From: Paludisphaera mucosa
Lineage (GTDB): Bacteria; Planctomycetota; Planctomycetia; Isosphaerales; Isosphaeraceae
Length of the DNA: 64,000 nt
Assembly (NCBI RefSeq): GCF_029589435.1
Contig: NZ_JARRAG010000005.1
Span: 38,765 to 102,764, forward strand
Reading direction: 5' to 3'
The notes beneath the pieces are model-generated. The model was given only the letters and a program-made list of their open reading frames with translations. It made no database searches and was not told the origin of the DNA. A program made the translations under genes and the position numbers. This document shows, one piece after another, positions 27,478 to 56,922 of this stretch (positions are counted from its first letter, which is position 1; every line of letters begins with the position of its first letter).

Positions 27478-28095
27478 TCATGAATCTCGAGGAACGCCGG
27501 GGGGCGTATGATGTGAGTGTGCATAGGTCATGAGTTTCCGACGCGAGGCGAGGAACCTGGTCAGGACCAAGCATGCGATCGTCGCCTGAACTACGGCGGT
27601 GGGCTCCGGCACCATGACGAGTTGAGCGCCCGACTCTCCGCCCAAGACGTCGAACTCGAGTCGGCTCAGGTCGACTGTGCCGGGGTCTGTACTGCTGAGA
27701 AACGTGTAGCCTGACAATATGCCGCCGATCGCAATATCCGCCGCTTCGGTGAGCGAGAAGTAATTCAACTCGTCGGCGACGGGGGGCAAGGGTGCGAAGA
27801 AATCCCAGTCGGCCATCGGGATTCCGTTCACGTTTTTCGGCGCGGTGATGAAACTCGAGGCGTCCAGGCCGAAGACGGTGTTGGCCCCTATGAGGTTGAG
27901 CCCACTGATGGTTTCAGATCGGCCCGTTTCCGGGTTGATGAACAGCCTGTTCACGATCGTCAAGTCGTACTCGTAAAGGCCGCCGCCGATCGAATGGGCC
28001 GTCACGATCAATTCGCCCCGAGCGGCGGGCGCGACGGCCAGCACGGCCGTGACGACGGAGATCTGGAAGACGGCGAACGTCTTGATACTCATCAT
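27478..28095 (-). CDS. PEP-CTERM-type exported protein
   Basis: The 205-residue protein has an N-terminal signal peptide (MMSIKTFAVFQISVVTAVLA, then AARG), a beta-rich body (LYEYDLTIVNRLFIN, AIGGILSGYTFLSS) and, near the C terminus, VPEPTAVVQATIACLVLTRF followed by RRK. That is the sorting signal recognised by exosortase-type systems. Unusually, about 19 residues (LMTYAHSHHTPPGVPRDS) follow the basic anchor, where the family normally stops. A lost stop codon may have extended it. It lies 78 bases downstream of the 28174 gene on the same strand and could be co-transcribed. The function is unknown. Confidence 0.78.
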   Translation of the reverse strand: MMSIKTFAVFQISVVTAVLAVAPAARGELIVTAHSIGGGLYEYDLTIVNRLFINPETGRSETISGLNLIGANTVFGLDASSFITAPKNVNGIPMADWDFFAPLPPVADELNYFSLTEAADIAIGGILSGYTFLSSTDPGTVDLSRLEFDVLGGESGAQLVMVPEPTAVVQATIACLVLTRFLASRRKLMTYAHSHHTPPGVPRDS

Positions 28096-28173: not shown

Positions 28174-29436
28174 TCAAGGCGTGAATTGCTGTACCGTCAG
28201 CGGCCCGTCGAGTCGGTCGCCCTCGCTCACGAGGACCAGGAGGCCGCCTTGGCCGTCGGGCTCCAGGTCGTGAGGGTAAGATCCCGCGGGCAAGTTGAAC
28301 CGAGACGTCGACTCTCCGGTCGTCGGGTCCAGGGTGACGATGGCCGAGTCCGACGTCGGGGGGCTGAGTTCCTGCCCATTGAGGGAGGCATAGAGACGTC
28401 CATTCACCCAGGCCAGACCGTTGATGAGTGGGCTCGCCGCCATCTCAGACAGGATCACGCCGTCGGATTTCCGAATCCTGACGATGGAATAGTCCTGCCG
28501 GCCCGCACGGACCCCCTGCAGCCAGAACTCCTGGCCGTTCAGCGCGATCCCTCCCCATCGGCCCGCCGGCAAGGGGATCGACCCCTCGACGCCTCCGCCG
28601 GCGTTGGCGTCGAGCCTGTAAAGCTTCGCCTCATCGTAGACGATCTGCCACACGTCCGATCCATCGGCCACCGCCCCGCCTTTTTGACCTTTCAAGGGAA
28701 GCACCTCGAGCAGGCTCCCGTCGCTAGGGTCGAAAAGCTGGATCGTGCCGTCAACGTCCGTGGTTCGGACCGGGATTCCACCCGTCGCGAGCCCGGCGCG
28801 TCCGGCCTCTCCCATCCCGGTCCCCAAGATGAGGTTCGAGGTCAGATCCCGGATCTCGAAGTTGAGGATCTGGTCCGCGTTTCGGGAGCAGACGATTCCG
28901 ATGTTCCTCGACGCGCCGGCGAGCGTCACCGTGGCTTTCGCCGTGATTCTCGTAGGCCCTCCCGCATTTTCAGAGGTGATTTCGACGCTCTTGAGGTCGT
29001 TCGACCTTATGAGCGTACGCGTCGCGGCGTTGTAGAATTCCAGGAAGCTCAACCGAGGTGAAGCATTCGACAAGGAATGTGCGTCGGACTCGTCCGGAAC
29101 CCCCAGGACTGAGACCCGAACCAGGGACGCCTGGTTGTGGTTGCGCGGGTCGATGAATTTGCCCGCAAAGACTACAAGGTAGACGGGGGTCTGGCACGCG
29201 GCCGCGTAGACGGCGGGCCCCGTGTTCCCCAGGAAATCCTGCCTCGTCGGCAGAGCCAGCCCCGCATAGATCGTCGCGTCCCCAGGGAGGTTCAAGATCA
29301 CCCGAAGAGCGGGCTGCTGGAATGCAGTGGCTTTATCTGACAGGAGCAGAAGGCCGGCCGGGCCGACTCCCGCGATCGCCATGATCTCCCCGAGGAAGCG
29401 CCTCCGACGAGATCCGGATTTCTGCTTGGGGTTCAC
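28174..29436 (-). CDS. Tat-exported propeller-like protein, paralogue of the 43445-44776 gene
   Basis: The 420-residue protein begins with a twin-arginine-like leader (SRRRRFLGEIMAIAGVGPAG). Residues 40-220 form a beta-rich domain with no recognised family. The C-terminal 200 residues are propeller-like with DVWQIVY, WGGIALNG and INGLAWVNGRLYASLNGQEL, and they end with a blade containing PHDLEPDG. The same motif string occurs in the protein encoded at 43445-44776, so the two are paralogues. They flank the enediyne-type operon on the same strand. This suggests, but does not prove, a shared extracytoplasmic role with that pathway. No catalytic motif is visible. Confidence 0.72.
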   Translation of the reverse strand: MNPKQKSGSRRRRFLGEIMAIAGVGPAGLLLLSDKATAFQQPALRVILNLPGDATIYAGLALPTRQDFLGNTGPAVYAAACQTPVYLVVFAGKFIDPRNHNQASLVRVSVLGVPDESDAHSLSNASPRLSFLEFYNAATRTLIRSNDLKSVEITSENAGGPTRITAKATVTLAGASRNIGIVCSRNADQILNFEIRDLTSNLILGTGMGEAGRAGLATGGIPVRTTDVDGTIQLFDPSDGSLLEVLPLKGQKGGAVADGSDVWQIVYDEAKLYRLDANAGGGVEGSIPLPAGRWGGIALNGQEFWLQGVRAGRQDYSIVRIRKSDGVILSEMAASPLINGLAWVNGRLYASLNGQELSPPTSDSAIVTLDPTTGESTSRFNLPAGSYPHDLEPDGQGGLLVLVSEGDRLDGPLTVQQFTP

Positions 29437-30129: not shown

Positions 30130-33100
30130 TCAGGAGAACTCGGCCAGTGCTGTTCGAAGAGCTTCGGGGATCGGGGACGGCGTCGGCCCGGCGGGACCGC
30201 GCCGCAGGCAGGCGACGCTTTGTCTGCCGCACGCGACCAAGAGCTCGCCGTCGCTCGAGACCCGCCAGTAATCGAAATGGAATGCGATGGAGTAAGTCCC
30301 CAGGGACTCAAGACTCATCCGCACGGCGACCTCGTCGAAGGGTTTCAATTCCGATAGAAAGTCGCAGGAGACGTTCGTGGTGACCAGGGCGATGTCGCGC
30401 TCCAGCGCGGCCAGGACGGCGGGGGCGTGGTCGCGGAGGAACATTTCCCGGCAGCGGCCTTGCCATCTCAGATGGTTGACGAAATAGATGTTCCCGAGGA
30501 GGTTCGACTCCTCGAGGCCGATCACGTGCCTGTACTCGTAGGTCCGCCGCCGCCCCCCTTCGTCGGCATGCAGACCGTTCAGCTGCGGGGGTCGCACGGC
30601 CAGGGCGACGGCGATCAAATCGGGCTCGCCGGCGACCGGCAGCACGTGAGCCAGGACCGTCGCTCCCCCGGCCCGGAAGGTCTCCCAGCCTCCCGAATCC
30701 GTCGTCTCGTGGACGAGAGTGTCGGGGTCGATGGAGCCGAGCTTCTGCAAGCTCTCCGAGGCGGCCCAGACGCGGGCGGCCGCGGCGTCGAGCCCGCCTC
30801 CGGCTTCGTCCGCCAGCCTGCGGGCCAGGCCCAAACGGTGTTCGCCGAGGACACCCAGCCAATCGTCCACCGGGCGAGCCCGAGCGGGCTCGACGTCGCA
30901 CCCGAGGGGCCAGCGCCCGACGGCCGCAAGGGTCAGCATTCCGGCGTGAGCTGCCGAAGAATGAAGGCCTTTGAAGGCGTCAGGCTTTCCGTCCGGGCGA
31001 CGTCGCACCGGAGTCGCGTCTCCAAACGCCCGAGCCATCGCGCGGTCCGTACGACTGCGACGATCGGCCGCCTCCCCGGTTTCCACGGCGAAGGCCACCT
31101 CCAAGCCCGGCGCCAGCTCGCTCGCCCGACGCTCGAGATAAGGAGCTAGTAAAACGGCGGGCCACCGGCCGATGTTGTGCGTCGACCCGATGACTTTCAG
31201 TCGAAGCCCTTCCCAGCGTTCGACGGGCGTCGCATTCGCGTCGAAGATCGTCAAGTCGTATGTGAAGACGCCGTCGTCGCACGACCGCTCGTCGGCGACC
31301 ACGCGACGCGGGCCCTTCCGCCAGACGGGGTCGGCGATGATCCGACGTACGCCGACCGGTAGGACCGAAACGTGAGGGATGCAGGCCTGGACGCAGTGCA
31401 CGGCCGCGTCGCGGGCTCCTGGGTCGCCCAGAATCGGCTCCTCTTCCGGGCGGTCTCCGAACCAGTTGCGGCGGTCGGAGGGGGCGACCTCCGCGCGGCA
31501 GGCCTTGGCGGTCAGCCGGTCGTAGCTTCGCAAGCGTCGGAACCGTCCGCCCTGAAACAGTAGGGCACCGTACAACTCCCGCTCGGGGTCGAGCGACAAC
31601 CGATCTACGGCCTCGCCCGCACCGGGGTCGTGGATCCCGGCGGCCCAGGGATGCTCCGGACCTGATCGGAAAGTGGCCCGGAAATGATCGAGGTGATACC
31701 CCGTCGCGTGACACCTCAGCGCGACCTCCACGACGCCCCCCTCTCTGACGAGGGCCACGAGGCGGACGGTCGTCGATCCCGCGTCGTCGATGATGATCGG
31801 GCGTTCGAATGCGACTTCCTCGATGATGGTCGGCATCGGTCCCTGTCCGCGCATCACGCCCGCCACGGCCTGGGCCATCGCCTCCAACCCGATCACGGCG
31901 GGCAGAAGCCTTTCCCCCTGGAACACGTGGTCGTCGAGGTAGGGGTCGGCCTTCCGTGAAAGGTCGGTCTCGGCGACCAGTTCGATGCCCGGGTAGTCGA
32001 TGAGGAGCCGGTCGAGAAATCGAAGAGCGGGTAGGGGCGGGCGGGCGAGCGACAGCGTCGGCGAATCGCCGATACGGCCGGCGACGACCACCGAAGCGTG
32101 TGGCGGACGCTTCGCGACGAGCGCGGTGAACAGGGCGGCCCCCGTTTCGGTCGGTATCGGCCCGACTCCCTCGCGCGTCAACGCCTCGATTCGACCGAGC
32201 CGCTCCCCCATCCCGACGCTGGCCCAGACCGACCACTCCAACGCCAGGCAGTAGCAGGCCGGGTGCTCAGCCTGGAATCGCCCGGTCAACTCGGTCTGCC
32301 AGGCGTTCGCCAGGGCGTAATGGGCCTCACCTCGCATCCCGGTGCGGGCGATGATCGAGCCGAAGGTCACGAGCAAGTGGATCCTACGAGAGGACACGGC
32401 GTCGAGCACGTTCCGGAGGCCCTGAACTTTCGGGGCCGATGTGCGCTGGAGCAACTCCAGGTCCAGTTCGACGAGGGGCCGGGGCTCGTTCACTCCGGCT
32501 GCATGGACCACCGCGGTGATCGGCCCGAGACCGGCCTCGACCGTCGCGACTGCCCGGCGGACCTCGTCGGCGTGGGTCACGTCGGCGGAGGCGTATTGGC
32601 AGTCCACCCCCGCGGCTCGGATCCGCTGCAGGTTTGCGGCCAAGTCGGGGTCGTCCTCGGGCCGGGCCCGCCCCATCAGGCCCAGCCGCACGCCGGTGCG
32701 ACGGGCCAACTCCAGGGCGCATTCCGCGGCGACCCCCTTCCCCCCGCCCGTGACGAGCACCACGTCTTCCGACCCGAGTGAATGTCGGGCCGGCGGGCTC
32801 CCGAGGGGACCGAGGGGCCGAAGCGACGGTTCGAACCTATGCCCGGAGCTGTCGTAGCGGACCTCGACGAAGCCGCGACCAGTTGGGGCCTCGGCGACTA
32901 CCCAGGCGGCCGCGTCGGGGTGGCTCAGGGGGACCACGACGGCCGCCGTATCAAGCCACGGCGCTTCGAGGTGGACGGACTTGGCGAACGCGGCGCCGAC
33001 CCCGCCCGAGCCGACCACCAGAAACCGCCCGTCCGTGGCCAGTTTCAGCGCGGCCCTGGCCCCCTCCAGGAGGAGTTCGAGCCAACTCGACTCGGCCTCG

Positions 33101-36100
33101 TCGGGTAGGACCACGGCGACGCCGGGGCCGCCCGCACGGCCCAGAGTCCGCCCGAGCTCTTGCGCGATCCCGTCGCCGGTCGGGGCCACGATGTGCCAGG
33201 ATACGTCTCCGTCGGCCGATGCGGATCGGGGCGGGCGAGTCTTCTCGACCCACTCGACCGTGAACGGCCTGACCCAATCTCCCAGCCCGAGGGCGGCCGA
33301 GGGAGCGTCGCTCGCCTTCGTTCCGCCCCAGGCCGATTCCTCCAGTGCCGCCGCCGCCTCGGCCACGGTCACGTTCGCAAATCGTGTGGGAAGGACGGGG
33401 GCGGGCATGCCCAGTCGTCGGGCCGCCTCGACGACCAGTTGACTGACCGCAATCGAGTTCAGGTGCAAATCACGCAGGAGCCGATGGTCGTCGCCGACCT
33501 CCTCGACGGGAAGCTCCGTCCTCTCGGCCACGAGCCTTCGGACCACGTCGACGGCCCGACCCTGAACGGACACTCCAATCGTCGGGGCCTCAAGGTCCTG
33601 TCGCGATCCCGGGACCTCCACCCGCTCTGCAGTCGCGCCTCGCGGCGATTCGAGAGGATCGGACGGGGAAATGGATTCACACGGGTTCGTGAAGAATCGG
33701 GGCGTGGCGCCGAGGTCCAGGGGGCGGAGAAAGCGGTCTTCGAAGAGCACGCCAGGCCGGACGGCGCATCCGGCCGCGAACGCCGCGGCGACCGCCCCGA
33801 GGAGCCCGCGGAACGAGGCTCCCCCGACGTCCAACGACACGACATGGGAGGCGCCGCTCTCAGCCGCCAGTCCTCCGAGGACGTCGCCCGGGCCGACCTC
33901 GACCCAAAGATCGATCCCCTCGCACGCGGAGAATGCCTCGACGAAGCGAATCGGGGCGGTGACCTGGCGGCAGAGAATCGAGGCGAGGTCCGCGTCGCGT
34001 TCCAGCAGCGCTCCGGTGACCGTCGAGACGACGGCTTTCCGAGGCGGGGCGAGCCTCTCGCGGCCGATCGCCTCGGCCAAGGGCGTCATCGCGTCGGCGA
34101 CGAGGGGGGAGTGGAATGCCCGAGAGACCCCGAGGATCGTCGCCGCCACCCCCGCCAAGCGGGCTCGCTCGACCACCCGAGCCACGGCGCAGGTCGGCCC
34201 GGAGACGACCGTCTGCCGTGGAGAATTCAGGGCGGCGACGACGACCGGCTCGCCGTCGATCAGAGTTTCGGCCCACGTCCGGTCTGCGCCGAGACTCGCC
34301 ATAGCTCCAGCGTCCCCTCCGGCCACGCATCCGGCCATCGCCCGCCCCCGCGCCTTCGCCAGACGCATCAGGGTCGTCGCGTCGATGCAGCCGCCCCAGT
34401 ACAGCGCGGACAGTTCCCCGACGCTGTGCCCGACGCCGACCTCGGCGACGAGCCCAACCTCGTCGAGCACGGCGAGGCCCGCGATCGCGGCGGCCAGGAT
34501 CGCCGGCTGCGCGACATCAGTCGACCGGCCGTCGCGGACTTCCGGCAGGTCGGCCGTCTCGTAAGCCCGACGAACCGCCGGGAACCGGCGAGCCCAGGAG
34601 TCCGGAGCCCGGTACACGGGAGATCCCTGGCCGGGGAAGAGGAATCCGACGCGCGGGGTTTCGCAGCCCTCCCCTACAAAGACGCCGTTGCGAACGTCAA
34701 GCCGGGTGCCCGGGCCGTCGTCGAGCCTGAGACGAAGGACCTCGAGCCGCTTCACAAGTTCGGCGGGCGTCGAGGCGACGACCGCCGCCCGATATGGCTT
34801 TCGTCGGGGGCCGAGTCGGAAGGCCAGGGTGCCGGCCGCGTCGGTCAGCTCGGAGCGAGACAGCCCCGGGGCGAGACGGTGGAAGTCCTCGATCCAGGCT
34901 CGCAGCGCCCCCGCTGAGTCCTCCTCGAAGACGAACAACTCGGCGTCCTGGGGCGACCGGAGCAGGCGCGACTGCTCCGGCGTTAGAGACCGCCGTCGCT
35001 GGGCTTCGAGGTTCTCAAGCACGACGTGAACGTTGATCCCTCCGAAGCCCATGGCGCTGACGCCGGCGCGGAACGGGAGGTCCGCGGGCCATGGCTCGCC
35101 GTCGGTGGGCGCGCGCAGTGCGGCCGTTGGGGCGGTCAGCTCCGGGTGGGGGATGTCGCAGCTGGTGGCGGGAGGGATCACCTGGACGTCAAGGGCCATG
35201 ACCGCCTTGATCAGACCGGCGACGCCGGCGGCGGCCTTCGTGTGACCGATGTTCGCCTTGACCGACCCGACGGCCGTCGGACCAGACACGACCTCCCGGT
35301 CGGCCTCGCGGCGAGCGCGGCCTAGAGCCCGGAGTTCGGTCGCATCGCCCACGGCCGTGCCGGTGCCGTGCCCCTCGAAGTAGGCGACCGAGTCGATGCC
35401 GAACCCGGCGCGCCGATAAGCCCTCCGCAGGGCGAGGACCTGGCCCTCCACCTCCGGACGGGTCAATCCACCATGGCCGTCGGACGAGACTCCCCAACCG
35501 GGGAGCGTACATCGGATTCGCTTCCCCTGGGCGAGCGCGTCCTCCCAGCGCATGAGCACGACGACGCCGCACCCCTCACCCGGCCAGAATCCGTCCGAAC
35601 GGGCGTCGAAGACCCGCATCTCCCCGCTCGTCAGCGCTCCGGCCTTGGCGAACCCCACGAGCTCGAAAGGGTCGAGGCTGACGTCCACGCCGCCCGCGAG
35701 GGCCACGTCGAGGTCGCCGACCGACAGGGCGGTGCAGGCGTGGACGACCGCCAGCAGCGACGAAGCGCACGCCGCATCGACGGTCGAGCCGCCCCCGTTG
35801 AAGCCGAAGTGGTTGCAGATCCGGCCGGCGATCGTGTTCGAGAGGCCGCCGGAAAGCGTCTCGGGGCCGACCGGCGGGAACGGCGCCTTGTAGCGAACCT
35901 CCAGCTCGTCCAGGAACTTCCGCCGCCGATCAGGCGGCCATCCTTCGCTCGTCAGCGCCGAGGCGATCGTGCGGCGGACGTACGGCCAGCGCAGGCGGAG
36001 GGCCTGGGCCCGAGAGGTTTCTCCCGTAAGAGTGTTGCCCAGATAGACGCCGGTCTGTTCGCGGGGCAGGTCCGCACCGTCGGGGAAGCCGGCGTCGACC

Positions 36101-36405
36101 AGCGCCCGATCGGCGACGTCCAGCGCCAGCCAGTGGACCGGGTCGGCGGCGCGGAAGGCCTCGCCTGAGACCCGGAAGCGGACCCGGTCGAACTCGTAGT
36201 CGCGGATGACGGCCGCCTCGGTCGCGCAGGTGTGGTCCGGGGCGTCCAGGCCCTCGACGAAATAGGCGTCGAGGTCGAGCCGTTCGCGTGGGAGACGTCG
36301 GAACGCCCGACGGCGAGCCAGCGCGTTCTCCCAGAGCGCCTGCGGCGAAGGGGCGTCGGCGAACTCGCAGGCCATACCAATGATCGCGATCCGCTTGGTG
36401 CTCAT
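30130..36405 (-). CDS. pksE: Enediyne-type iterative type I polyketide synthase with fused thioesterase
   Basis: The 2091-residue enzyme has the domain order of enediyne polyketide synthases: KS (1-430; Cys213, His346, His388), AT (about 590-860; GHSVGE, Ser661), ACP (about 950-1015; DLHLNSIAV, Ser984), KR (about 1215-1440; TGGGKGVAAECA, Tyr1363) and DH (about 1480-1740; His1493 in HVFQGERLLP). An integrated phosphopantetheinyl transferase follows (about 1755-1935; GCDVEP with Asp1837 and Glu1839, then Glu1884 and Lys1888). In known systems this core builds a linear polyene on its own ACP. The last 140 residues are a hot-dog thioesterase like CalE7/DynE7 (EESNLLGNIYFVNHLRWQGR), which is normally a separate protein. 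The ATG overlaps the unbU stop by four bases. All key residues appear intact. Confidence 0.95.
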   Translation of the reverse strand: MSTKRIAIIGMACEFADAPSPQALWENALARRRAFRRLPRERLDLDAYFVEGLDAPDHTCATEAAVIRDYEFDRVRFRVSGEAFRAADPVHWLALDVADRALVDAGFPDGADLPREQTGVYLGNTLTGETSRAQALRLRWPYVRRTIASALTSEGWPPDRRRKFLDELEVRYKAPFPPVGPETLSGGLSNTIAGRICNHFGFNGGGSTVDAACASSLLAVVHACTALSVGDLDVALAGGVDVSLDPFELVGFAKAGALTSGEMRVFDARSDGFWPGEGCGVVVLMRWEDALAQGKRIRCTLPGWGVSSDGHGGLTRPEVEGQVLALRRAYRRAGFGIDSVAYFEGHGTGTAVGDATELRALGRARREADREVVSGPTAVGSVKANIGHTKAAAGVAGLIKAVMALDVQVIPPATSCDIPHPELTAPTAALRAPTDGEPWPADLPFRAGVSAMGFGGINVHVVLENLEAQRRRSLTPEQSRLLRSPQDAELFVFEEDSAGALRAWIEDFHRLAPGLSRSELTDAAGTLAFRLGPRRKPYRAAVVASTPAELVKRLEVLRLRLDDGPGTRLDVRNGVFVGEGCETPRVGFLFPGQGSPVYRAPDSWARRFPAVRRAYETADLPEVRDGRSTDVAQPAILAAAIAGLAVLDEVGLVAEVGVGHSVGELSALYWGGCIDATTLMRLAKARGRAMAGCVAGGDAGAMASLGADRTWAETLIDGEPVVVAALNSPRQTVVSGPTCAVARVVERARLAGVAATILGVSRAFHSPLVADAMTPLAEAIGRERLAPPRKAVVSTVTGALLERDADLASILCRQVTAPIRFVEAFSACEGIDLWVEVGPGDVLGGLAAESGASHVVSLDVGGASFRGLLGAVAAAFAAGCAVRPGVLFEDRFLRPLDLGATPRFFTNPCESISPSDPLESPRGATAERVEVPGSRQDLEAPTIGVSVQGRAVDVVRRLVAERTELPVEEVGDDHRLLRDLHLNSIAVSQLVVEAARRLGMPAPVLPTRFANVTVAEAAAALEESAWGGTKASDAPSAALGLGDWVRPFTVEWVEKTRPPRSASADGDVSWHIVAPTGDGIAQELGRTLGRAGGPGVAVVLPDEAESSWLELLLEGARAALKLATDGRFLVVGSGGVGAAFAKSVHLEAPWLDTAAVVVPLSHPDAAAWVVAEAPTGRGFVEVRYDSSGHRFEPSLRPLGPLGSPPARHSLGSEDVVLVTGGGKGVAAECALELARRTGVRLGLMGRARPEDDPDLAANLQRIRAAGVDCQYASADVTHADEVRRAVATVEAGLGPITAVVHAAGVNEPRPLVELDLELLQRTSAPKVQGLRNVLDAVSSRRIHLLVTFGSIIARTGMRGEAHYALANAWQTELTGRFQAEHPACYCLALEWSVWASVGMGERLGRIEALTREGVGPIPTETGAALFTALVAKRPPHASVVVAGRIGDSPTLSLARPPLPALRFLDRLLIDYPGIELVAETDLSRKADPYLDDHVFQGERLLPAVIGLEAMAQAVAGVMRGQGPMPTIIEEVAFERPIIIDDAGSTTVRLVALVREGGVVEVALRCHATGYHLDHFRATFRSGPEHPWAAGIHDPGAGEAVDRLSLDPERELYGALLFQGGRFRRLRSYDRLTAKACRAEVAPSDRRNWFGDRPEEEPILGDPGARDAAVHCVQACIPHVSVLPVGVRRIIADPVWRKGPRRVVADERSCDDGVFTYDLTIFDANATPVERWEGLRLKVIGSTHNIGRWPAVLLAPYLERRASELAPGLEVAFAVETGEAADRRSRTDRAMARAFGDATPVRRRPDGKPDAFKGLHSSAAHAGMLTLAAVGRWPLGCDVEPARARPVDDWLGVLGEHRLGLARRLADEAGGGLDAAAARVWAASESLQKLGSIDPDTLVHETTDSGGWETFRAGGATVLAHVLPVAGEPDLIAVALAVRPPQLNGLHADEGGRRRTYEYRHVIGLEESNLLGNIYFVNHLRWQGRCREMFLRDHAPAVLAALERDIALVTTNVSCDFLSELKPFDEVAVRMSLESLGTYSIAFHFDYWRVSSDGELLVACGRQSVACLRRGPAGPTPSPIPEALRTALAEFS

Positions 36406-37367
36406 CGCTCCGCGGTCTCCAGCACCGGCGCCCCCACTTGCGTAACCGGCGACGATGCGTGAGACGCTCTAGTCGCGCGGGCCGGCGACCGTCTTCGGGG
36501 CCGGCCCGAGTAAGCCAGTGCGGCCCCGCGAAGCGAACAGACCAGCAGGAGCGAGAAGAAGAGCCCGAACACGACGTGCGAAGCGGTGAGCGCCCCGTAC
36601 ACCGCCGCCACCGCGCCGCCGAAAAGGAGCTGCCCCCCCAGCGACGACGGCGTCGTGCCCGGGTCCGTCACCATGTAGAAGGTGAACAATAAAAACGCCA
36701 TCCCGGTCATCGGCAGCAGCGTCGCCGTCAAGGGCGTGCCCCCGACTTGGCTGCGAATCACCGCCTGAATCACGAAGCCCCCCAACCAACCGAAGATCAA
36801 GGGCATCTTCCTGGTGAACCTTGTATTCAGGAACGTGCCGGATATCACCAGTATCAGCGGCAGGAACCAGTCGCCGGCCCCCGTCAGGTTCTCGGTGAAC
36901 TGGTACGGCGGCGCGATGCCGACCCAGGGGAAGGCGAGCAGGGTGACGGCGATCCCTGTATTCGAAGGGTTCAGGCAGTGTCGCACCCCCGACCCCACCG
37001 GCACCCGCACCAGCGATTTTGAGCTGATGGCGACGGCCGCCGCGAAGGCGATCGGCGTCAGACGATCGTTGGCGTACAGGAGCATCGCGACGGCCAACCC
37101 CGAAATGTGGGCTGGGAGCAGGAAGTCGACGTAACGACCGACGCCGCCTGCGAACCGGCACGGGCGGTCCTCTGACCAGGCGTTCGCGGCCTCAAGGGTC
37201 AGCTCCAGAAGATATGCTGTGGCCAGGGCTACGAGCGGCTGGGCCCACGACTGCTCAAACCCCAGGATCGAATGTCCCAAGAGGTTGAGGATCGTGATCG
37301 CCGCCGCAAACCGTCGCAGGGCGGCAAGTCGGAGGCCGTCCGCCGTCGCGGGGGTCCGCTGCGTCAT
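36402..37367 (-). CDS. unbU: UnbU-like enediyne cassette membrane protein (RnfD/NqrB fold)
   Basis: The 321-residue polytopic membrane protein has about eight hydrophobic segments and the RnfD/NqrB-family signatures CLNPSNTGIAVTLLAFPWVG and TFYMVTDPGTTPSSLGGQ. Proteins of this type (UnbU, E5) are a constant member of enediyne gene cassettes next to the polyketide synthase; their exact role is not settled. A redox or transport function is suggested by the ion-pumping relatives. The start overlaps the unbV stop (ATGA) and the stop overlaps the pksE start (ATGA), so all are translated from one message. The last 35 residues are Arg/Ser-rich and probably cytoplasmic. Confidence 0.93.
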   Translation of the reverse strand: MTQRTPATADGLRLAALRRFAAAITILNLLGHSILGFEQSWAQPLVALATAYLLELTLEAANAWSEDRPCRFAGGVGRYVDFLLPAHISGLAVAMLLYANDRLTPIAFAAAVAISSKSLVRVPVGSGVRHCLNPSNTGIAVTLLAFPWVGIAPPYQFTENLTGAGDWFLPLILVISGTFLNTRFTRKMPLIFGWLGGFVIQAVIRSQVGGTPLTATLLPMTGMAFLLFTFYMVTDPGTTPSSLGGQLLFGGAVAAVYGALTASHVVFGLFFSLLLVCSLRGAALAYSGRPRRRSPARATRASHASSPVTQVGAPVLETAER

Positions 37368-39367
37368 CGGTCGACGCCTCCCATTTCAGTCCGGGACGTC
37401 ACCCCCGCAGGGATGGCCCTCTTGAGCTCCGACCAGCCGAGTTGGACGGTGTGCCAGCCGGGCGGAAGGCTCAATTCCTCCCGCCGGACCTGCCCATTCG
37501 GGTCGCGCCATCTCAATGTGATCGAGAGCAACGTCCCCGGCGTCACCGGGCCGAGCCCGAAATGGAGGTCGGGGCTGCGCTTGCCGGAGTGGCCGTTGCC
37601 GCCGTCGCACTGCGCGACGAGGCGGCGTCCGCTCGGCAAGGCGACGGACGCCTCAGCCCCGATCGCCGGCCGGCCGGGCGTGTCGGGGCCTGGGTGGCCC
37701 GTTCGGGCCGATGTGGCCTCGGGCCGCAGGGGCAAACGCAAGTGCAGGCCCAGGAAAGCGTCGGAACCCGTCGACTCGTTATGGTGGAAGGTCGACGCGG
37801 CCCACTGGTTGGCGACCGCGAAGTCGAGCCTGCCGTCGCCGTCGACGTCGGCCGTGGCGATCCCGCGGCTGACCCCGGGCTCGGCCAGTCCCAGCTCCGC
37901 GGACAGGTCGACGAACCGGCCCCCGAACCGGACGAAGAACGGGTTGCGCCGACCGCCGCTGAGATCGTCCCCTGACGCGAACCGTGGCCAGTTCCCAGGG
38001 TCGCTCAGCAGCTCATCATGGCCCATCGCCAATTCCTGGAGCTCCGGCCAGCGATCCACGTCTCCCTTCATGAACCCGACCGCCTGAAGCGCCTCCAGGT
38101 CCCCGTCGTTGTCGAAGTCCGCCAGCCTCGCCTCCCAGCCCCAACCGCTCCGAGACAGCCCAAGCTCCTCGCTCCGATCGACGTAGGGCGCGACGCCCTC
38201 TCGGAAGGATCCGGCCTCGCCCGTGCTGATGAACGCGAAGTGACTCTCGAGCAGGGCGAACTCGGTCGCGATGTTGCTCACGAACAGGTCGAGAAGGCCG
38301 TCGCCGTTGAGGTCGCCGAAGTCGACGCCCATTCCTTTAAACGAGTCGCGCCCGAGCACCTTCGACGACGGGGTGGTCAGTCCACGACGTCCCTCCACCG
38401 GGGCGAACCGGATCGAACCCGGATGCGACCGGTTGTGCAACAGGCGGTCGGGGCCGAAGTCGTTCGCGAAGTAGAGCTCGGGGAGCAGGTCGCCGTCGAG
38501 GTCCGCAGCACCGACGGCGAGGGTCCAACCGTACAGGGTCGAATCGTCGAGGACGCCAGCCTCCTCGCGGAAGCGGACGTCGGGCTCGCCTCCCGACGTC
38601 GCGTCCGACCATATGAAGATGTGTTTTTCACCAGAATTGAACGCGCGGGACATCGACCGCTGCATGGAAGCCGTGCCTCGCGTGTCGACGTCGAGGATGC
38701 GCGATCCATCGGGGAAATAGTTGGCGACCACCAGGTCGGCGTGGCCGTCGCCGTCGAGGTCGGCGAGCGTCGCCGCGTTCGTGAACCACCGGTCGGACGT
38801 GGATGATACCTCGCGGGGGGCGAACGCCGAGCGCGCCGGCCCGGTCTCGCGGCTGGGCCGGCGGAGGAAGGCCACGGGGGTCCGGCCCCAATAATATACG
38901 AGCACGTCGGCCAGCCCGTCCTCGTTCAGGTCGCCGACCAGGGACCCCATGGGAGCCATCGTCGCCGGCTCGTAGTGCAGAGGGTTCGGATCCAGCGTGA
39001 ACGGCTCGTATCGGTCGGGTGTCCCCGGTGCCGGGGCGAGGATCACCCTGTCGGTCCGCGTGTCGACGTAGACCACGTCGTTCGGCAATCCGTCGCCGTC
39101 CAGGTCGTGCAGCGCGACGGCGGCGCCCACCGAGGAGATCCAGGCCGAAATACCCTCCAGCCGTGGGTGGACCGAACGCCGTGACCGAGGCTGCGGGCTG
39201 GTCCCGACCGGCTCGGGCAACTCGACCGTCGTGAACCGGAAACGGGCCGCTACCCTTTCGCGAAGGGCGATCTGCGGGTAGGAAGGCCGCGCCGCCGCGT
39301 ACAGGGTCGCAAGCACCGAAATCGCGATGAGCCGAGCCGCGTTCCGTCGAAGGATCGAGGTCGTCAT
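37364..39367 (-). CDS. unbV: UnbV-like enediyne cassette protein (FG-GAP repeats, ASPIC/UnbV domain)
   Basis: The start at 39367 is preferred to the longer frame because its ATG overlaps the unbL stop (ATGA), as at the other junctions of this operon. The 667-residue product has a signal-like N terminus (NAARLIAISVLATLYAAA). A propeller of FG-GAP repeats follows, with Ca loops (DLDGDGLPND, DLNEDGLADV, DLDGDGHADL, DLNGDGLLDL, DVDGDGRLDF). The ASPIC/UnbV C-terminal domain is IGAEASVALPSGRRLVAQCD, then NGHSGKRSPDLHFGLG. UnbV proteins (E4) belong to the conserved enediyne core, but their biochemical role is unknown. The CRTAC1-like architecture means an extracytoplasmic site is likely. Confidence 0.93.
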   Translation of the reverse strand: MTTSILRRNAARLIAISVLATLYAAARPSYPQIALRERVAARFRFTTVELPEPVGTSPQPRSRRSVHPRLEGISAWISSVGAAVALHDLDGDGLPNDVVYVDTRTDRVILAPAPGTPDRYEPFTLDPNPLHYEPATMAPMGSLVGDLNEDGLADVLVYYWGRTPVAFLRRPSRETGPARSAFAPREVSSTSDRWFTNAATLADLDGDGHADLVVANYFPDGSRILDVDTRGTASMQRSMSRAFNSGEKHIFIWSDATSGGEPDVRFREEAGVLDDSTLYGWTLAVGAADLDGDLLPELYFANDFGPDRLLHNRSHPGSIRFAPVEGRRGLTTPSSKVLGRDSFKGMGVDFGDLNGDGLLDLFVSNIATEFALLESHFAFISTGEAGSFREGVAPYVDRSEELGLSRSGWGWEARLADFDNDGDLEALQAVGFMKGDVDRWPELQELAMGHDELLSDPGNWPRFASGDDLSGGRRNPFFVRFGGRFVDLSAELGLAEPGVSRGIATADVDGDGRLDFAVANQWAASTFHHNESTGSDAFLGLHLRLPLRPEATSARTGHPGPDTPGRPAIGAEASVALPSGRRLVAQCDGGNGHSGKRSPDLHFGLGPVTPGTLLSITLRWRDPNGQVRREELSLPPGWHTVQLGWSELKRAIPAGVTSRTEMGGVDR

Positions 39368-40320
39368 GCCGCGATGCCCCCCCCCGACAACCGCGTTCGG
39401 ATCCGCGCCCGCCAAATTTCGTAGACCGGAACGGCCGACTGGTCCCCGGGCAGGTCGATCAGGGCGTCATCGGTCACGACGGCCGCCTCCTCGGCGCCTC
39501 GGCCGCAAAGCACGCGACAAGCCAGTTCGGTGTGGGCGGCGGGGTTCCTCGCGCGTTGCCTGGCCTTCGCGGCGAACGCCGCCCCCTGGGCCAGCTGCTC
39601 CGGGTCCGGGCAGGCCGCCCGGAGGGCGGTGATCTCGTCCCGACCGACGCCGCCCGCATATCCGCAGGCAAGCCCTACGCCCGCCCACAAGTCAACTCGA
39701 CGATCGGGTGCGAACGTCCCAATTCGACGGGCGATTCGGCCGACGTCCGCCCCTTCCGCAAACCAGAGGCTGCGTCCGAGGCCCTGGTCGAACGCCCGCA
39801 AGGCGTAGCCCGCGAACTCACCGGGCGACTCGCACGCGTCGAGATATCGGGGCGGGTGAAAGTAGCCTTGGTGGAAGCCATAGCCGTCGACTGCGAGCCA
39901 ACCGAGCAACGGGTCGAGGCCGCGGAGCAACCGTCCGGACCCCCATGGCAGCCGAGCGAGTGCGCAACCGAACCCGACATGGAGCATGTAGACGTGCGGG
40001 GCGCCTGGGCCGTGCAGGAGGGCCCGGAAGCGACTTGCACCCCACGGGGTCAGTCCGTCGAGAATCGCCGCCGCCATCGCCGCCCCTTCGTACGCGAAGC
40101 CGCGAGTCTCGACGGCGAATCCATCAAGGCGCTCTCCCAACCCGACCACGTTCGGAGCTTCCAGCGCAGCGTTGTACCCCGCGATGAAGACTCGCCCGAC
40201 CGATTCGAGGCGCTGGTGAGCCTCGATGCCGGCCTCGCGGAATCCCCGACGCACGAAACCGGCCTCCTCCGCCTCGATGCCCAGCCAGCTCCGGCGAAAC
40301 CGGCGATATAGCACTCCCAC
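39364..40320 (-). CDS. unbL: UnbL-like enediyne cassette protein (DUF1702)
   Basis: The gene starts with GTG at 40320, preceded by a weak GGGGAA stretch. The 318-residue product matches DUF1702 along its length: RRSWLGIEAEEAGFVRRGF at the N terminus, EGAAMAAAILDGLTPW, then HVYMLHVGFGCALARLPWG, GYGFHQGYFHPPRY and WFAEGADVGRIARRIG, then WAGVGLACGYAGGV. DUF1702 proteins (UnbL, E3) are found almost only with enediyne polyketide synthases and are part of the minimal cassette. The reaction is unknown. It is the first of the four core genes here and lies 121 bases after the amine oxidase gene. Confidence 0.94.
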   Translation of the reverse strand: MGVLYRRFRRSWLGIEAEEAGFVRRGFREAGIEAHQRLESVGRVFIAGYNAALEAPNVVGLGERLDGFAVETRGFAYEGAAMAAAILDGLTPWGASRFRALLHGPGAPHVYMLHVGFGCALARLPWGSGRLLRGLDPLLGWLAVDGYGFHQGYFHPPRYLDACESPGEFAGYALRAFDQGLGRSLWFAEGADVGRIARRIGTFAPDRRVDLWAGVGLACGYAGGVGRDEITALRAACPDPEQLAQGAAFAAKARQRARNPAAHTELACRVLCGRGAEEAAVVTDDALIDLPGDQSAVPVYEIWRARIRTRLSGGGIAA

Positions 40321-40441: not shown

Positions 40442-41923
40442 TCAGGTGAGGGCCGATATTTCGTGCGCGACCCGCTGGCCTGACTCGAGGGCGCCGTTCA
40501 TCCAGCCGGGGAAGACCGAGGCGTGATCGCCCGCGAAGTGAAGCCGTCCCTCGCGACGTGCGAGAAGAGACCCCATTTCTGATTCCTGGCCTGGCAGGAA
40601 GACGGGATACGCCCCCCGGGCGAATGGTTCTCTGCCCCACCGAATTGCGACGGCCTCCTCGACCTCGGAGCCCAGGCCGGGGTGGATCTTCTCGCCGATG
40701 CCGATGGCCGTGCGGATGAGCTCCGGGGTTGTTCCAACCTGGTCGAGAGGACCCGCTCGGCCCATCGCATAGAAGACCATCAGTCCTCGCCCGTCCGCCC
40801 GATCGGACCAATCTTGATAGAGAATCGACTGGATCGGCAGGTCCGTGTACGTGACCCCTCCTCGACGGCCACCCTCACCCTCCCAGAACCGGCGGCGGCA
40901 CTGCAGCACGACTTTCGTGGCGGGCTCGTAGTTGAGTTCGCGGACCGCCCGGGCCTTCTCCGGCGAGAGCGCGGGCTCGAATACGACGTCCCGCAGGACC
41001 GAGAAGGGGACGGCCAACACGACTCGCTCGGCGACTAATCTTTCGCGACGACCATCCCGAATAAAGCAGACGACCGGCCGAGGCCCGCCGTGCTCCACAC
41101 GGACGACCTCGATTCCGTACTGGACGGCGTCCTTCAAACGACCGGCCATGAGCTTCGGAAGCCGATCGTTCCCCCCATCGATCGTGAAGAAACCGTCGTG
41201 GTAGTCATGCAGTTCCTCGCGGAAGTTGGCGAGGAACGCCGTATGTAAAAACGGCGCGAAACCCAACATGTCGCCGATCATCCGCAGCCCTTCGGTCGAG
41301 ACCTGGCGAGACTTCAGGAACTCGCCGAGCGACAGATGGTCGAGGTCGCTCAATTCGCGCGGCCAGGGGTTGACCGTCGGTGGCAGACGAAGTCGCATGT
41401 AGGGCTCGAGGGACCGCTCCCAGAGTCCGATCGGCCCCAGCCGGCGCTCCTCCTCCGGCAGTTCATACGGCAGAAGCTCCGGCCGACTTCGCACGTCGGA
41501 GCCCCGAAGCGCCCGGCCCCGAACGTAGTAATTTCGGTTCTCCTGGTCGGATCGCACGGGTCGGGGCTTCAGTCCGAACTTGCGAGCGAACCCCAGGGTG
41601 AGTGAATGGCTCGCGGGGATCCGCCACGGGCCCAACTCCACGTTGAATCCGTCGCGAAACGGGGCTCGGGCAGTCCGGACTCGCCCACCCGGCTCGGAAC
41701 GGGCCTCCAGCACCCGCACGGGAACTCCGCGCTCGGCGAGCTCAAGGGCGGCGGCGAGGCCCGCCAGGCCAGCCCCGACGACGACCACGGGAGGGCGGTC
41801 GTCGGAGCTGCTCGGCGGCCCGGCCCTCGTCCACGTCGCCCCGAAGGCGGAGCCGGCGCCGATCAGGAAGCGCCTCCGACTCGGAAGGGCGACTTCGGGA
41901 TCGAGGCCGGCCGTGGTCGTCAT
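40442..41923 (-). CDS. Tat-exported FAD-dependent amine oxidase
   Basis: The 493-residue flavoprotein has a twin-arginine leader (SRRRFLIGAGSAFGATWTRA) and then a dinucleotide-binding site (PVVVVGAGLAGLAAALELAE, with the Glu of VRVLEARSEPGGRVRT binding ribose). The C-terminal FAD motif is RLHFAGDHASVFPGWMNGAL, followed by ESGQRVAHEI. These are the marks of flavin monoamine/L-amino-acid oxidases. It would oxidise an amine substrate outside the cytoplasm, releasing peroxide. Its start overlaps the stop of the 41920 gene (ATGA), tying it to the operon that continues into unbL-unbV-unbU-pksE. It might modify the pathway product or supply an oxidant, but this is inference; the substrate cannot be read from the sequence. 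Confidence 0.88.
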   Translation of the reverse strand: MTTTAGLDPEVALPSRRRFLIGAGSAFGATWTRAGPPSSSDDRPPVVVVGAGLAGLAAALELAERGVPVRVLEARSEPGGRVRTARAPFRDGFNVELGPWRIPASHSLTLGFARKFGLKPRPVRSDQENRNYYVRGRALRGSDVRSRPELLPYELPEEERRLGPIGLWERSLEPYMRLRLPPTVNPWPRELSDLDHLSLGEFLKSRQVSTEGLRMIGDMLGFAPFLHTAFLANFREELHDYHDGFFTIDGGNDRLPKLMAGRLKDAVQYGIEVVRVEHGGPRPVVCFIRDGRRERLVAERVVLAVPFSVLRDVVFEPALSPEKARAVRELNYEPATKVVLQCRRRFWEGEGGRRGGVTYTDLPIQSILYQDWSDRADGRGLMVFYAMGRAGPLDQVGTTPELIRTAIGIGEKIHPGLGSEVEEAVAIRWGREPFARGAYPVFLPGQESEMGSLLARREGRLHFAGDHASVFPGWMNGALESGQRVAHEISALT

Positions 41924-43401
41924 CGAGCCCCCCCCGTAATCTCACGGCCGCGGCTCGGGCCGACATCCACGACGCGCCCGTCGTTCGGGACGTTCGGGGC
42001 GCCCTGACCTCGATTGATCGTCCGATAGGCTGTCGTGGTCGCGCGCGGCTCGTCGGCCTTGCCGTCGTGATCCAGGTCGAGCCAGCCGGCCGCGGTGCAT
42101 ATCGTCTCAGGGAGGTTCAGGTCGAGGATCCCGTCTCCATCCTCGTCGGTCATCTTGCCCTTCCAGGTGCCGGAGACGAAGGCGTTGCAGTATTCCCCCT
42201 TGTCATCGTCGGCGACGACCGCCCGCAGGAACTCGCCGCGGTCGAGGGTGCTGCCGTCCCCGTCGTCGTCGTCGAGCAGTTGGGCCATCGAGACGTAGCC
42301 CCAGCTCAGGAAGTTGCCTTTCACGTAGCGGATCGCGAAGTCGTCTCGCACGGGGATGTTGGGATCCAACTTCCACTGGCCGACGCGCACGAAGTTGACG
42401 TCCCCGTCCATTACGCCGGCGCTGGTGTTGCCGATCTGGCCCGAGACGAAGAAGGGCCGCTTTTCCGTCGAGACGAACGCGAAATTCGCGGTGTTCGGGT
42501 TGGTCCGCTCGGTCAAGCCGTGGAATCGGAAGGTCTCGTAGTGGGGGGCGCCGTCGGTGTAATAGTTCTTGATGCGCTTCGTCATCACCATGCGATGCTC
42601 CCGCGAAGCCACGGTGGTGTTCGCGTGGCATTTGCCGAAGACCTCCTCGATCTTCAGCGGCGAGAGCACGACCTTGACCCACGTTTTGAGCGGGGTCTTC
42701 ACGTAGACGTTGCAGAGGATATGCAGCGGGATCGACTGGTCGAAGACTCTCCCGGCGTAGCCGCGGACCTTTCGGCTGCCGAACCCCACGACCCCGACTC
42801 CCAACTCTTCGTGGAAGATGGAGGCCCACTCGCGGACCTCGATGTTGGAATCCTCCAGGGCCGTCTTCACGAAACCGACCGCGTTCGTCCCCCCGAATTT
42901 CGCGGCCGCCCAGAGAGCATCGATCCGGACCCTGGGATCCGCCTCGTTCTGGTAAGCCCGCAGTAATCCCGGCACGGCCTTTTCGCGATGCCGGTCGGCG
43001 TACTCGAAGACCGCCTGCTCCCGAAGCGTCGAGGAGTTGCCGACTCCCATGGCTTTGATCACCTCGGCGTCGGAGCGGGTGTCGAACCGACGACTGACGC
43101 GGTCGAGCGCGACCCGAAAATGCGTCCATTCGGCCGGGTCGACGCCGAGGTCCGTGGCGACCATGGCCTTCAGGTCGTCTCCCAGGTTGAGTTGCGACGG
43201 AACGACGTCGATCTCGCGCTCCTGCGTCAAACCGCCGCCAGGCGCGGGGGTCGCGGGCTTGACGGGTTCCTGCGCGGACGGCCTCACCGCCGGGACGACG
43301 GTGAACGCGGCCATGAGCAATCCCCGAGCAATAAACCGAATGGGTTGAGGAGCCAACACAGACGCCCTCCTTTCCACAAAATTCGATGGGGCTTTGGGCA
43401 C
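41920..43401 (-). CDS. Exported HEAT-like repeat protein of unknown function
   Basis: The 493-residue protein has an N-terminal signal region (ARGLLMAAFTVVPAVRPSAQ). A helical HEAT-like segment follows at about 110-200 (NSSTLREQAVFEYADRHREK, then AVPGLLRAYQNEADPRVRID, then ALWAAAKFGGTNAVGFVKTA). The C-terminal half is beta-rich and unfamiliar, with KCHANTTVASREHRMVMTKR and late acidic loops (DDDDGDGSTLDRGE, DEDGDGILDLNLPE, DLDHDGKADEP) that look Ca-binding. It is the first gene of the probable operon leading to the enediyne core and overlaps the amine oxidase start by four bases. The CHANT-type Cys/His stretch could bind metal or haem, but there is no CXXCH. No function is assigned. Confidence 0.8.
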   Translation of the reverse strand: MPKAPSNFVERRASVLAPQPIRFIARGLLMAAFTVVPAVRPSAQEPVKPATPAPGGGLTQEREIDVVPSQLNLGDDLKAMVATDLGVDPAEWTHFRVALDRVSRRFDTRSDAEVIKAMGVGNSSTLREQAVFEYADRHREKAVPGLLRAYQNEADPRVRIDALWAAAKFGGTNAVGFVKTALEDSNIEVREWASIFHEELGVGVVGFGSRKVRGYAGRVFDQSIPLHILCNVYVKTPLKTWVKVVLSPLKIEEVFGKCHANTTVASREHRMVMTKRIKNYYTDGAPHYETFRFHGLTERTNPNTANFAFVSTEKRPFFVSGQIGNTSAGVMDGDVNFVRVGQWKLDPNIPVRDDFAIRYVKGNFLSWGYVSMAQLLDDDDGDGSTLDRGEFLRAVVADDDKGEYCNAFVSGTWKGKMTDEDGDGILDLNLPETICTAAGWLDLDHDGKADEPRATTTAYRTINRGQGAPNVPNDGRVVDVGPSRGREITGGAR

Positions 43402-46170: not shown

Positions 46171-46394
46171 GACTCGATGATGCGCAGCCCGCCCGCTTCA
46201 GCTCAGGCACCGACCCATGAACACTCACCGAGCGACCACGGCCAACCTCTTGAAAGCCCTCGGGCGGCCCAGGCGCAGCGGGCGTTAGGCGGCGAACGAC
46301 TGGGCGGGTTAAAGCCGCAATGTTGACCGCGCCGATAAGGATGAACGCGACGATTGGGCCGCCCCCGGACGGATCCGACGGCACCGGAGGTAGT

Positions 46395-48038: not shown

Positions 48039-48064
48039 CCGTCGCGAGGTTCGAGTGAGAGGCG

Positions 48065-56663: not shown

Positions 56664-56922
56664 CCGGCACTTTGGGGTACGCCTAGGAAGCAGGCGACAT
56701 CCGAGTGTCGGCACTTTGAGGTACGAATACCCGCCGTGCGCATGGCCGGGGATGGTTAATCCACTCCTACGAGCCCTCCGATCCCTTAATCCTTCCCCAT
56801 TTCACGGTTAAAGCCCGTCCGTCACTTTGAGGTACAGCCCTTCGCCAGTGCTTCGGCGGTCGGCACTTTGGGGTACTGACTCGATTTTCACTGCCCTGAG
56901 AAGGCGGCACCTTGGGGTTCGC
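56664..56922 (+). repeat. Five degenerate iterons
   Basis: Imperfect copies of the origin iteron core (CGGCACYTTGRGGTAC) occur at 56664-56682, 56709-56728, 56821-56837, 56861-56879 and 56905-56922, all in the same direction as the perfect array that follows. They are spaced irregularly and probably extend the initiator-binding region. Confidence 0.8.

What the first reader, a model, noticed from the sequence alone, without database searches (positions are those of the whole stretch)
30130..40320. Enediyne core cassette (unbL-unbV-unbU-pksE) on a planctomycete-type plasmid
Four adjacent minus-strand genes joined by ATGA overlaps match the conserved enediyne minimal set: DUF1702 (UnbL), FG-GAP/ASPIC (UnbV), RnfD-like (UnbU) and a KS-AT-ACP-KR-DH-PPTase synthase with intact Cys213/His346/His388, Ser661, Ser984, Tyr1363, His1493 and Asp1837. 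Enediyne loci are best known from actinomycetes. A copy on a mobile replicon in a planctomycete would be a new source and a possible route of transfer.
Basis: partly seen in the sequence, partly recalled or inferred. Interest (0 to 1): 0.95.

Follow-up and report, generated by a model that had tools for sequence, protein, structure and literature searches.

The report
Enediyne-type gene cassette on planctomycete plasmid
A likely plasmid of a planctomycete bacterium carries relatives of all five parts of the gene set behind the enediyne anticancer antibiotics, with the chain-releasing enzyme fused onto the main synthase; it is predicted to make an enediyne-type precursor, in a phylum for which my paper searches found no report of one.

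Summary
Confirmed, with additions. The four minus-strand genes at 30130-40320 encode relatives of the enediyne cassette: DUF1702/E3, ASPIC/E4, RnfD-like/E5 and PKSE. Catalytic residues match SgcE of C-1027. KS-AT trees put it among enediyne PKSs, apart from PUFA synthases, in a planctomycete clade with Aquisphaera insulae, Paludisphaera soli and Tautonia rosea. Grouping it with the seven actinomycete PKSs sampled is rejected (p-AU 9e-85), so a recent actinomycete origin is unlikely. The fusion is a minority state: 9 of 119 listed homologues, 0 of 41 loci with an uncut PKSE. The 102,764-bp contig looks like a circular plasmid (Rep, seven 22-bp repeats, ParAB, a recombinase gene reading across its ends). 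Enediyne loci on Streptomyces plasmids are known, and related planctomycete genomes are already public under generic names. Of 18 C-1027 region proteins queried, only the six cassette ones have homologues on the contig, so a finished enediyne is uncertain; a polyene or iodo-polyyne precursor is the better prediction. A small bleomycin-resistance-family protein and an RND pump nearby may protect the host. New variant of a known kind.

The parts
30130..36405 (-). pksE: enediyne-type iterative PKS (E) fused to E10 thioesterase, 2091 aa
35161..36396 (-). KS domain (residues 4-415; Cys213, His346, His388)
33856..34650 (-). AT domain (about residues 586-850; Ser661); DynE8 structures 4amn/4amo match this part
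33346..33546 (-). ACP (residues 954-1020; Ser984)
32221..32766 (-). KR domain (about residues 1214-1395; Tyr1363)
31183..31983 (-). DH domain (residues 1475-1741; His1493)
30616..31068 (-). integrated PPTase region (about residues 1780-1930; Asp1837 aligns with SgcE Asp1827); no Pfam hit, placed by alignment
30133..30540 (-).
36402..37367 (-). unbU / E5, RnfD/NqrB-like membrane protein
   Evidence: (53% to the C-1027 homologue)
37364..39415 (-). unbV / E4, FG-GAP plus ASPIC; more likely start is the ATG at 39367
   Evidence: (46%)
39364..40320 (-). unbL / E3, DUF1702
   Evidence: (42%)
40442..41923 (-). flavin amine oxidase, L-amino-acid-oxidase-like, with a twin-arginine-like N-terminus (by eye); same strand, 121 bp upstream of unbL; link to the cassette unproven
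41920..43401 (-). HEAT-repeat protein, signal-like N-terminus (by eye); ATGA overlap with the oxidase gene; homologues beside cyanobacterial cassettes L030 and L060
43445..44776 (-). protein of unknown family, 31.5% identical over 419 aa to 28174-29436
28174..29436 (-). paralogue of 43445-44776 on the other side of the operon; twin-arginine-like N-terminus (by eye)
27478..28095 (-). small protein with PEP-CTERM-like tail (VPEP, hydrophobic stretch, RR; by eye)
45319..45687 (+). 122-aa glyoxalase/bleomycin-resistance (VOC) family protein, candidate self-resistance or binding protein; a homologue lies between unbU and pksE in Microseira (L028:7624-7986)
46320..49861 (+). two outer-membrane efflux (OEP) genes, 46320-48038 and 48065-49861
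51022..52476 (-). HlyD/CusB-type adaptor of the efflux system
52554..55841 (-). AcrB-type RND pump
56905..57057 (.). seven 22-bp iteron-like direct repeats before the Rep gene
57192..58673 (+). candidate plasmid replication initiator (493 aa)
59087..60828 (-). parB (59087-60016) and parA (60013-60828)
63337..63990 (-). C-terminal part of a serine recombinase that reads across the contig end into C5:1-1547
25133..26402 (-). insertion sequence: DDE transposase 25154-26323 inside 18-bp terminal inverted repeats

Best explanation
A likely plasmid of a Paludisphaera-related planctomycete carries, in four overlapping genes, relatives of all five parts of the conserved enediyne polyketide-synthase cassette (E3, E4, E5, E and E10), with the E10 thioesterase fused to the end of the synthase, and it is predicted to make and release a long conjugated polyene that UnbL, UnbV and UnbU would turn into an iodinated polyyne, the likely shared precursor of enediynes. 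Shown here: the genes, their homology to the C-1027 cassette, intact catalytic residues, the fusion, the tree position and the plasmid-type replication genes. Inferred from characterised relatives: (1) the PPTase region arms the ACP; (2) KS, AT, KR and DH build the chain iteratively; (3) the fused thioesterase takes over the release done elsewhere by free-standing E10; (4) the RnfD-like membrane protein UnbU carries electrons for desaturation, together with UnbL and the FG-GAP protein UnbV. Open: whether the product goes on to a bicyclic enediyne, because none of the 12 non-cassette C-1027 region proteins queried has a homologue on this contig; and whether the neighbouring oxidase, VOC-family protein and RND pump act on, bind or export it.
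Against: No product is known to me for any planctomycete cassette. 12 of 18 C-1027 region proteins have no homologue on the contig at E 1e-3, the flavin reductase, P450 and GMC oxidoreductase among them. UnbU is below the Pfam cut-off. The iodinated-polyyne step rests on Gui et al. 2024, of which I saw only the title in another paper's reference list; its content is recalled, and a 2024 paper still calls the roles of E3, E4 and E5 uncertain (PMC11069151, passage). In SgcE's cluster E10 is free-standing, so a fused enzyme could release a different chain. The secreted PEP-CTERM family common beside sister loci is absent here.
Confidence: 0.85

Rival explanations
1. The cassette makes a finished, cyclised enediyne, with ring-forming and tailoring enzymes that are unrelated to the C-1027 ones or coded elsewhere in the genome (for example the flavin oxidase 40442-41923), and the VOC protein at 45319 sequesters it.
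For: PMC5181780 passages say that no conservation was seen between enediyne clusters beyond the cassette. A flavoenzyme lies directly upstream on the same strand. A 122-aa glyoxalase/bleomycin-resistance family protein lies 0.5 kb beyond the upstream genes; TnmS1-S3 of tiancimycin are described as bleomycin-resistance-like sequestration proteins (PMC6804068, PMC9854587, passages); its homologue in Microseira sits between unbU and pksE (29% over 103 aa, 1 of 83 loci). A tripartite RND pump is close by.
Against: No P450, flavin reductase or GMC relative on the contig at E 1e-3. No homologue of the flavin oxidase beside the 83 loci at E 1e-6. VOC proteins are a large family with many functions; the best PDB match here is an N-demethylindolmycin synthase at 1e-4.
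Confidence: 0.3
2. The cassette makes a linear polyene pigment or lipid only; UnbL, UnbV and UnbU modify it or place it in the membrane rather than forming alkynes.
For: Sister cassettes outside actinomycetes often sit beside PEP-CTERM proteins and, in Isosphaeraceae, exporter genes. UnbU is a membrane protein by its fold. Loci with UnbL, UnbV and UnbU and a discrete KS but no PKSE exist, so these three are not tied to PKSE.
Against: UnbL, UnbV and UnbU are 42-53% identical to the proteins that accompany SgcE. The order unbL-unbV-unbU-pksE recurs in many of the 83 loci compared.
Confidence: 0.22
3. It is a polyunsaturated fatty-acid (PUFA) synthase relative, not an enediyne PKS.
For: TIGR02813 (PfaA) matches at 496 bits, and PUFA synthases are common in this family: 16 of 40 genomes searched, own included, have a match over the cut-off.
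Against: 496 bits is under half of the PfaA cut-off of 1010. The genome has a separate PfaA-like gene on C2. The tree separates the two with 100/100. E3, E4, E5 and E10 partners are present.
Confidence: 0.02
4. The locus was recently acquired from an actinomycete by plasmid transfer.
For: Actinomycete plasmids carry enediyne loci. Presence in the planctomycete family is patchy, 6 of 45 genomes.
Against: A clade of the window sequence plus the 7 actinomycete sequences sampled is rejected, log-likelihood 110.8 lower, p-AU 8.6e-85. The nearest rows with a named origin are planctomycete. The G+C of the cassette is within the range of the window.
Confidence: 0.02

Closest known systems
C-1027 enediyne PKS cassette (sgcE3, E4, E5, E, E10) on Streptomyces globisporus plasmid SGLP1, NZ_CP013739.1
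   Same: All five cassette parts homologous (38-53% identity); same order DUF1702, CRTAC1/UnbV, RnfD/UnbU, PKS; also on a plasmid.
   Different: There E10 is a separate gene about 6.5 kb downstream, DUF1702 is doubled, and P450, flavin reductase and GMC genes surround it; the tree places the two in separate clades.
Isosphaeraceae sister loci: Aquisphaera insulae JC669 (L033), Paludisphaera soli JC670 (L043), Tautonia rosea (P0008, contig of 193,566 bp)
   Same: Same planctomycete clade. Order unbL, unbV, unbU, pksE in Aquisphaera and P. soli; unbL, unbV and the synthase seen in Tautonia. The Tautonia contig also bears Rep, ParA and ParB relatives.
   Different: In Aquisphaera and P. soli E10 is a free-standing gene overlapping pksE by 14 bp, and a secreted PEP-CTERM family lies beside unbL, with MacB, ABC and HlyD family genes in P. 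soli and MacB and HlyD family genes in Aquisphaera. The window has an RND pump and other neighbours.
CalE7 / DynE7 / 4i4j ACP-polyene thioesterases
   Same: The C-terminal domain matches over nearly its whole length at E 1e-39 to 1e-43, including the stretch around NL-GN-YF and WQG-CRE.
   Different: Free-standing proteins there; fused to the PKS here.
Non-actinobacterial enediyne-type cassettes already in print: Methyloprofundus INp10 (PMC8788690, passages), cyanobacteria (PMC4247773, passages), metagenomic enediyne KSs (PMC10308959, passages)
   Same: Cassette or KS homologues outside Actinobacteria with unknown products.
   Different: Planctomycetota are not named as an enediyne source in those passages; no fusion is mentioned there.
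PUFA synthase PfaA
   Same: Related iterative KS-AT architecture.
   Different: Below the family cut-off and on the other side of a 100/100 branch.

Membership tests
Enediyne PKS cassette (E3/E4/E5/E/E10) | PKSE with KS, AT, ACP, KR, DH and integrated PPTase, catalytic residues intact | tested here: met
   the PPTase is placed by alignment to SgcE only, no Pfam hit
Enediyne PKS cassette (E3/E4/E5/E/E10) | KS groups with enediyne PKSs, not with PUFA synthases | tested here: met
   SgcE of C-1027 is the only characterised enediyne PKS in the trees
Enediyne PKS cassette (E3/E4/E5/E/E10) | E10 thioesterase | tested here: met
   present as a fused domain, not a separate gene
Enediyne PKS cassette (E3/E4/E5/E/E10) | E3 (DUF1702) and E4 (ASPIC/UnbV) homologues adjacent | tested here: met
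Enediyne PKS cassette (E3/E4/E5/E/E10) | E5 (UnbU, RnfD-like) homologue adjacent | tested here: met
   (53%); the Pfam score itself is below cut-off
Enediyne PKS cassette (E3/E4/E5/E/E10) | makes a conjugated polyene and iodinated polyyne precursor | not testable with these tools
   needs expression and LC-MS
Mature C-1027-type enediyne gene cluster | tailoring genes beyond the cassette (flavin reductase, P450, DUF5987, GMC, TIGR03084) | tested here: not met
   12 of 18 queries had no hit on the contig at E 1e-3; the chromosome was not searched with them
Mature enediyne gene cluster | self-resistance or sequestration protein | tested here: inconclusive
   a VOC/bleomycin-resistance family protein lies at 45319-45687; function untested, no chromoprotein or self-sacrifice protein was sought
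PUFA synthase (PfaA) | NCBIfam TIGR02813 over its cut-off | tested here: not met
   496.2 bits against 1010.1
PUFA synthase (PfaA) | KS in the PUFA clade | tested here: not met
Plasmid | own replication initiator with iterons and partition genes | tested here: met
   candidate Rep with one copy on each of own contigs C3-C7, seven 22-bp repeats, ParA and ParB; Rep is so named from this distribution, no library names it
Plasmid | circular, separate from the chromosome | tested here: inconclusive
   one recombinase ORF of 736 aa reads across the joined contig ends; no reads to confirm
Conjugative or mobilisable plasmid | relaxase or type IV secretion genes | tested here: inconclusive
   none among the C5 proteins given to Pfam, which are not the whole gene set

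The most novel reading that the evidence does not exclude
A free-standing enediyne-precursor plasmid: the cassette is the whole pathway, the fused PKSE-thioesterase hands its chain to UnbL, UnbV and UnbU at the membrane, and the product is a linear iodinated polyyne that works as such, finished or held outside the cytoplasm by the exported oxidase and secreted proteins, bound by the VOC protein and pumped out by the RND system. Outside actinomycetes this would be the older, broader job of the enediyne cassette, with surface PEP-CTERM proteins as partners instead of tailoring enzymes.
Probability: 0.25. Interest if true: 0.8.

Novelty: new variant of a known kind. Interest (0 to 1): 0.5.

Why it matters
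Enediynes are among the most potent antitumour compounds, and their core-forming step is shared by one cassette. A naturally condensed, four-gene form in a phylum with few known metabolites, without the C-1027 tailoring genes on its replicon, is a clean subject for asking what the cassette alone makes. The repeated E-E10 fusions suggest that the synthase and its thioesterase act as one machine. The wide non-actinomycete distribution with secreted PEP-CTERM neighbours suggests that the cassette has a role older or broader than actinomycete antibiotics.
Full report
What is there. Pfam gives DUF1702 (351 bits) for unbL, FG-GAP plus UnbV_ASPIC for unbV, a below-cut-off RnfD match (23.3 against 27.7) for unbU, and KS, AT, PP-binding, KR and PKS dehydratase for pksE. 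The synthase does not end with the PPTase. Residues 1966-2087 match 4HBT_2, and in the PDB the C-terminal 216 residues hit the enediyne ACP-polyene thioesterases 4i4j, CalE7 and DynE7 at E 7e-43 to 3.5e-39. All five cassette parts, which PMC5181780 (passages read) gives as E3/E4/E5/E/E10, are therefore present in four genes.

Homology to a characterised cassette. I took the C-1027 locus from plasmid SGLP1 and compared 18 of the 31 annotated proteins of that stretch with the whole 102.8-kb contig. Six hit: both DUF1702 proteins (38% and 42%), UnbV (46%), UnbU (53%), SgcE (46.5% over 1943 columns) and E10 (49%). Twelve did not at E 1e-3, among them the flavin reductase, the P450, the DUF5987, the GMC oxidoreductase and the TIGR03084 protein. 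Alignment with SgcE and eight homologues puts Cys213, His346, His388, Ser661, Ser984, Tyr1363, His1493 and Asp1837 in columns identical in all ten.

Family tree. A homology search listed 120 synthases, the window's own included (4327 at E<=1e-50 among 7986 scored). From 191 usable KS-AT regions I used all 72 from loci (PUFA synthases and two repeats of own sequences among them), 30 of the 119 listed proteins, and the window: 103 rows, 101 different, and 50 of those for IQ-TREE. The window sequence lies on the enediyne side of a 100/100 branch from three planctomycete PUFA synthases, in a clade of 14 rows (100/99) that holds Aquisphaera insulae, Paludisphaera soli and Tautonia rosea, closest to the unnamed P0002, P0003 and P0004 (100/100). 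The seven actinomycete enediyne PKSs, SgcE among them, form their own clade (100/100). Forcing the window into one clade with them costs 110.8 log units (p-AU 8.6e-85). SgcE is the only characterised enediyne PKS in these trees. The own genome also has a separate PfaA-like gene on contig C2.

The fusion. The thioesterase is inside the synthase in 9 of the 119 other listed homologues. Among 53 loci with a PKSE over 600 bits it is fused in 0, separate in 37, not found in the stretch in 4, and undecidable in 12 because the gene is cut. On both trees at least six changes of state are needed, and one origin for all eight fused rows of the smaller tree is rejected (p-AU 4.8e-7). A listed protein without the domain was counted as unfused; P0004 may be truncated, which could lower the count. 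In several unfused loci the two genes overlap by a few bases (14 in Aquisphaera and P. soli), so fusion is a short step.

The replicon. The window is bases 38765-102764 of a 102,764-bp contig. Joining its end to its start gives one open frame of 736 aa with GC3 0.96, whose N-terminal part (L013:3-1547) holds Resolvase and Recombinase domains. A 493-aa protein at 57192-58673 has one homologue on each of own contigs C3, C4, C5, C6 and C7 and homologues in other relatives (20 of 44 genomes examined, own included, have a match). Seven 22-bp repeats lie just before it, and the repeat-plus-gene stretch is 81% identical over 1209 bp to a 42.5-kb contig of a congener without a UnbL match. ParA and ParB are next to it. 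This reads as an iteron plasmid. The Tautonia contig of 193,566 bp that holds its cassette also holds Rep, ParA and ParB relatives, so plasmid carriage may recur. PMC5352709 (title and passages) describes a pool of plasmids shared by Isosphaeraceae.

Distribution. UnbL occurs in 6 of 45 genomes of the family, own included (5 of 21 genera; 3 of 26 among the well-finished), in own plus 1 of 5 other genomes of the genus, and DUF1702 in 6 of 392 sampled planctomycete genomes, two of these weak at 60 and 28 bits. Enediyne-type loci on plasmids are not new: 49 plasmid records hold a UnbL relative, 47 of them Streptomyces.

Neighbours. Upstream on the same strand are a flavin oxidase close to L-amino-acid oxidases, a HEAT protein with relatives beside two cyanobacterial cassettes, and a protein whose paralogue (31.5% over 419 aa) stands on the other side of the operon. 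Twin-arginine and signal-like N-termini are my reading by eye. A small protein with a PEP-CTERM-like tail (by eye) follows at 27478-28095. Beyond the upstream genes, on the plus strand, is a 122-aa glyoxalase/bleomycin-resistance family protein at 45319-45687 (47.6 bits; best PDB match an N-demethylindolmycin synthase at 1e-4, with FosA-type and mitomycin-binding proteins lower down). One of the 83 loci has a homologue, and there it sits between unbU and pksE (Microseira, L028:7624-7986, 29% over 103 aa). TnmS1-S3 of tiancimycin are described as bleomycin-resistance-like proteins that sequester the enediyne (passages of PMC6804068 and PMC9854587). A self-resistance role here is therefore a reasonable guess, no more. 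An RND pump with adaptor and two outer-membrane factors follows (46320-55841).

Sister neighbourhoods. A secreted PEP-CTERM family, unrelated by profile to anything on this contig, sits in 25 of the 79 loci at E<=1e-5, 21 at 1e-10, and in none of the 13 actinomycete loci (most of the stronger hits were used to build the profile). P. soli and L132 also have MacB, ABC and HlyD family genes there, and Aquisphaera MacB and HlyD ones (Pfam was run on the P. soli proteins only). I read this as a sign of export and surface handling; it is an inference.

What is new. Cassette or KS homologues outside actinomycetes are in print for cyanobacteria, methanotrophs and several phyla (passages of PMC4247773, PMC8788690, PMC10308959). 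Planctomycetota are not in the enediyne list of PMC10308959; none of the 19 papers holding 'enediyne' and 'planctomycet' shows a planctomycete enediyne locus by title or abstract start (listing only); and a 2025 review names a type III PKS as the only targeted planctomycete cluster (PMC12078418, passages; the listing counts no 'enediyne' in it). The library lacks most subscription papers, Rudolf et al. 2016 among them, so absence in print is not shown. The verdict is a new variant of a known kind.

Noticed in passing
L072:6692-14999 and L097:5251-14553 (Schlesneria MAGs); also L085, L087, L095, L017: Planctomycete loci with unbL-unbV-unbU and a thioesterase-like protein but no PKSE hit of 250 bits in the stretch; in L072 and L097 a discrete KS (417 and 415 aa) and a small gene (an ACP by Pfam in L072) lie upstream, like a type II version of the enediyne cassette.
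   Followed up: partly
L066, L073, L077, L080, L081, L092, L096, L099, L101: Arrays of several DUF1702 genes, beside a PKS of a separate clade (about 30% identical to the window synthase where measured) in most of them, in Chloroflexota and actinomycetes; a distinct DUF1702 system.
   Followed up: partly
L033:9117-9902, L043:9083-9892 and 25 of 79 loci in all: A secreted PEP-CTERM family (G.D...T and DTIV.R motifs) recurs beside enediyne-type cassettes outside actinomycetes and matched no Pfam family in the one member scanned; it could be a surface carrier or partner.
   Followed up: partly
window 16659-22694 (repeats about 17937-20538): A 2011-aa protein with bacterial Ig-like domains and long internal tandem repeats (75-89% identical blocks).
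   Followed up: no
window 24001-24923; 62226-62639: HigB-type toxin with an HTH antitoxin candidate, and a RelE-like gene below its cut-off, as expected for plasmid maintenance.
   Followed up: no
L013:8687-15452 (C5:8687-15452): Helicase-like, FokI-cleavage-like and AAA/cold-shock genes in a row, perhaps a defence or restriction island; weak DrmD and REase matches.
   Followed up: no
window 10019-15879: ECF sigma factor, Ser/Thr kinase with TPRs and an FG-GAP protein in a row.
   Followed up: no
   Followed up: partly
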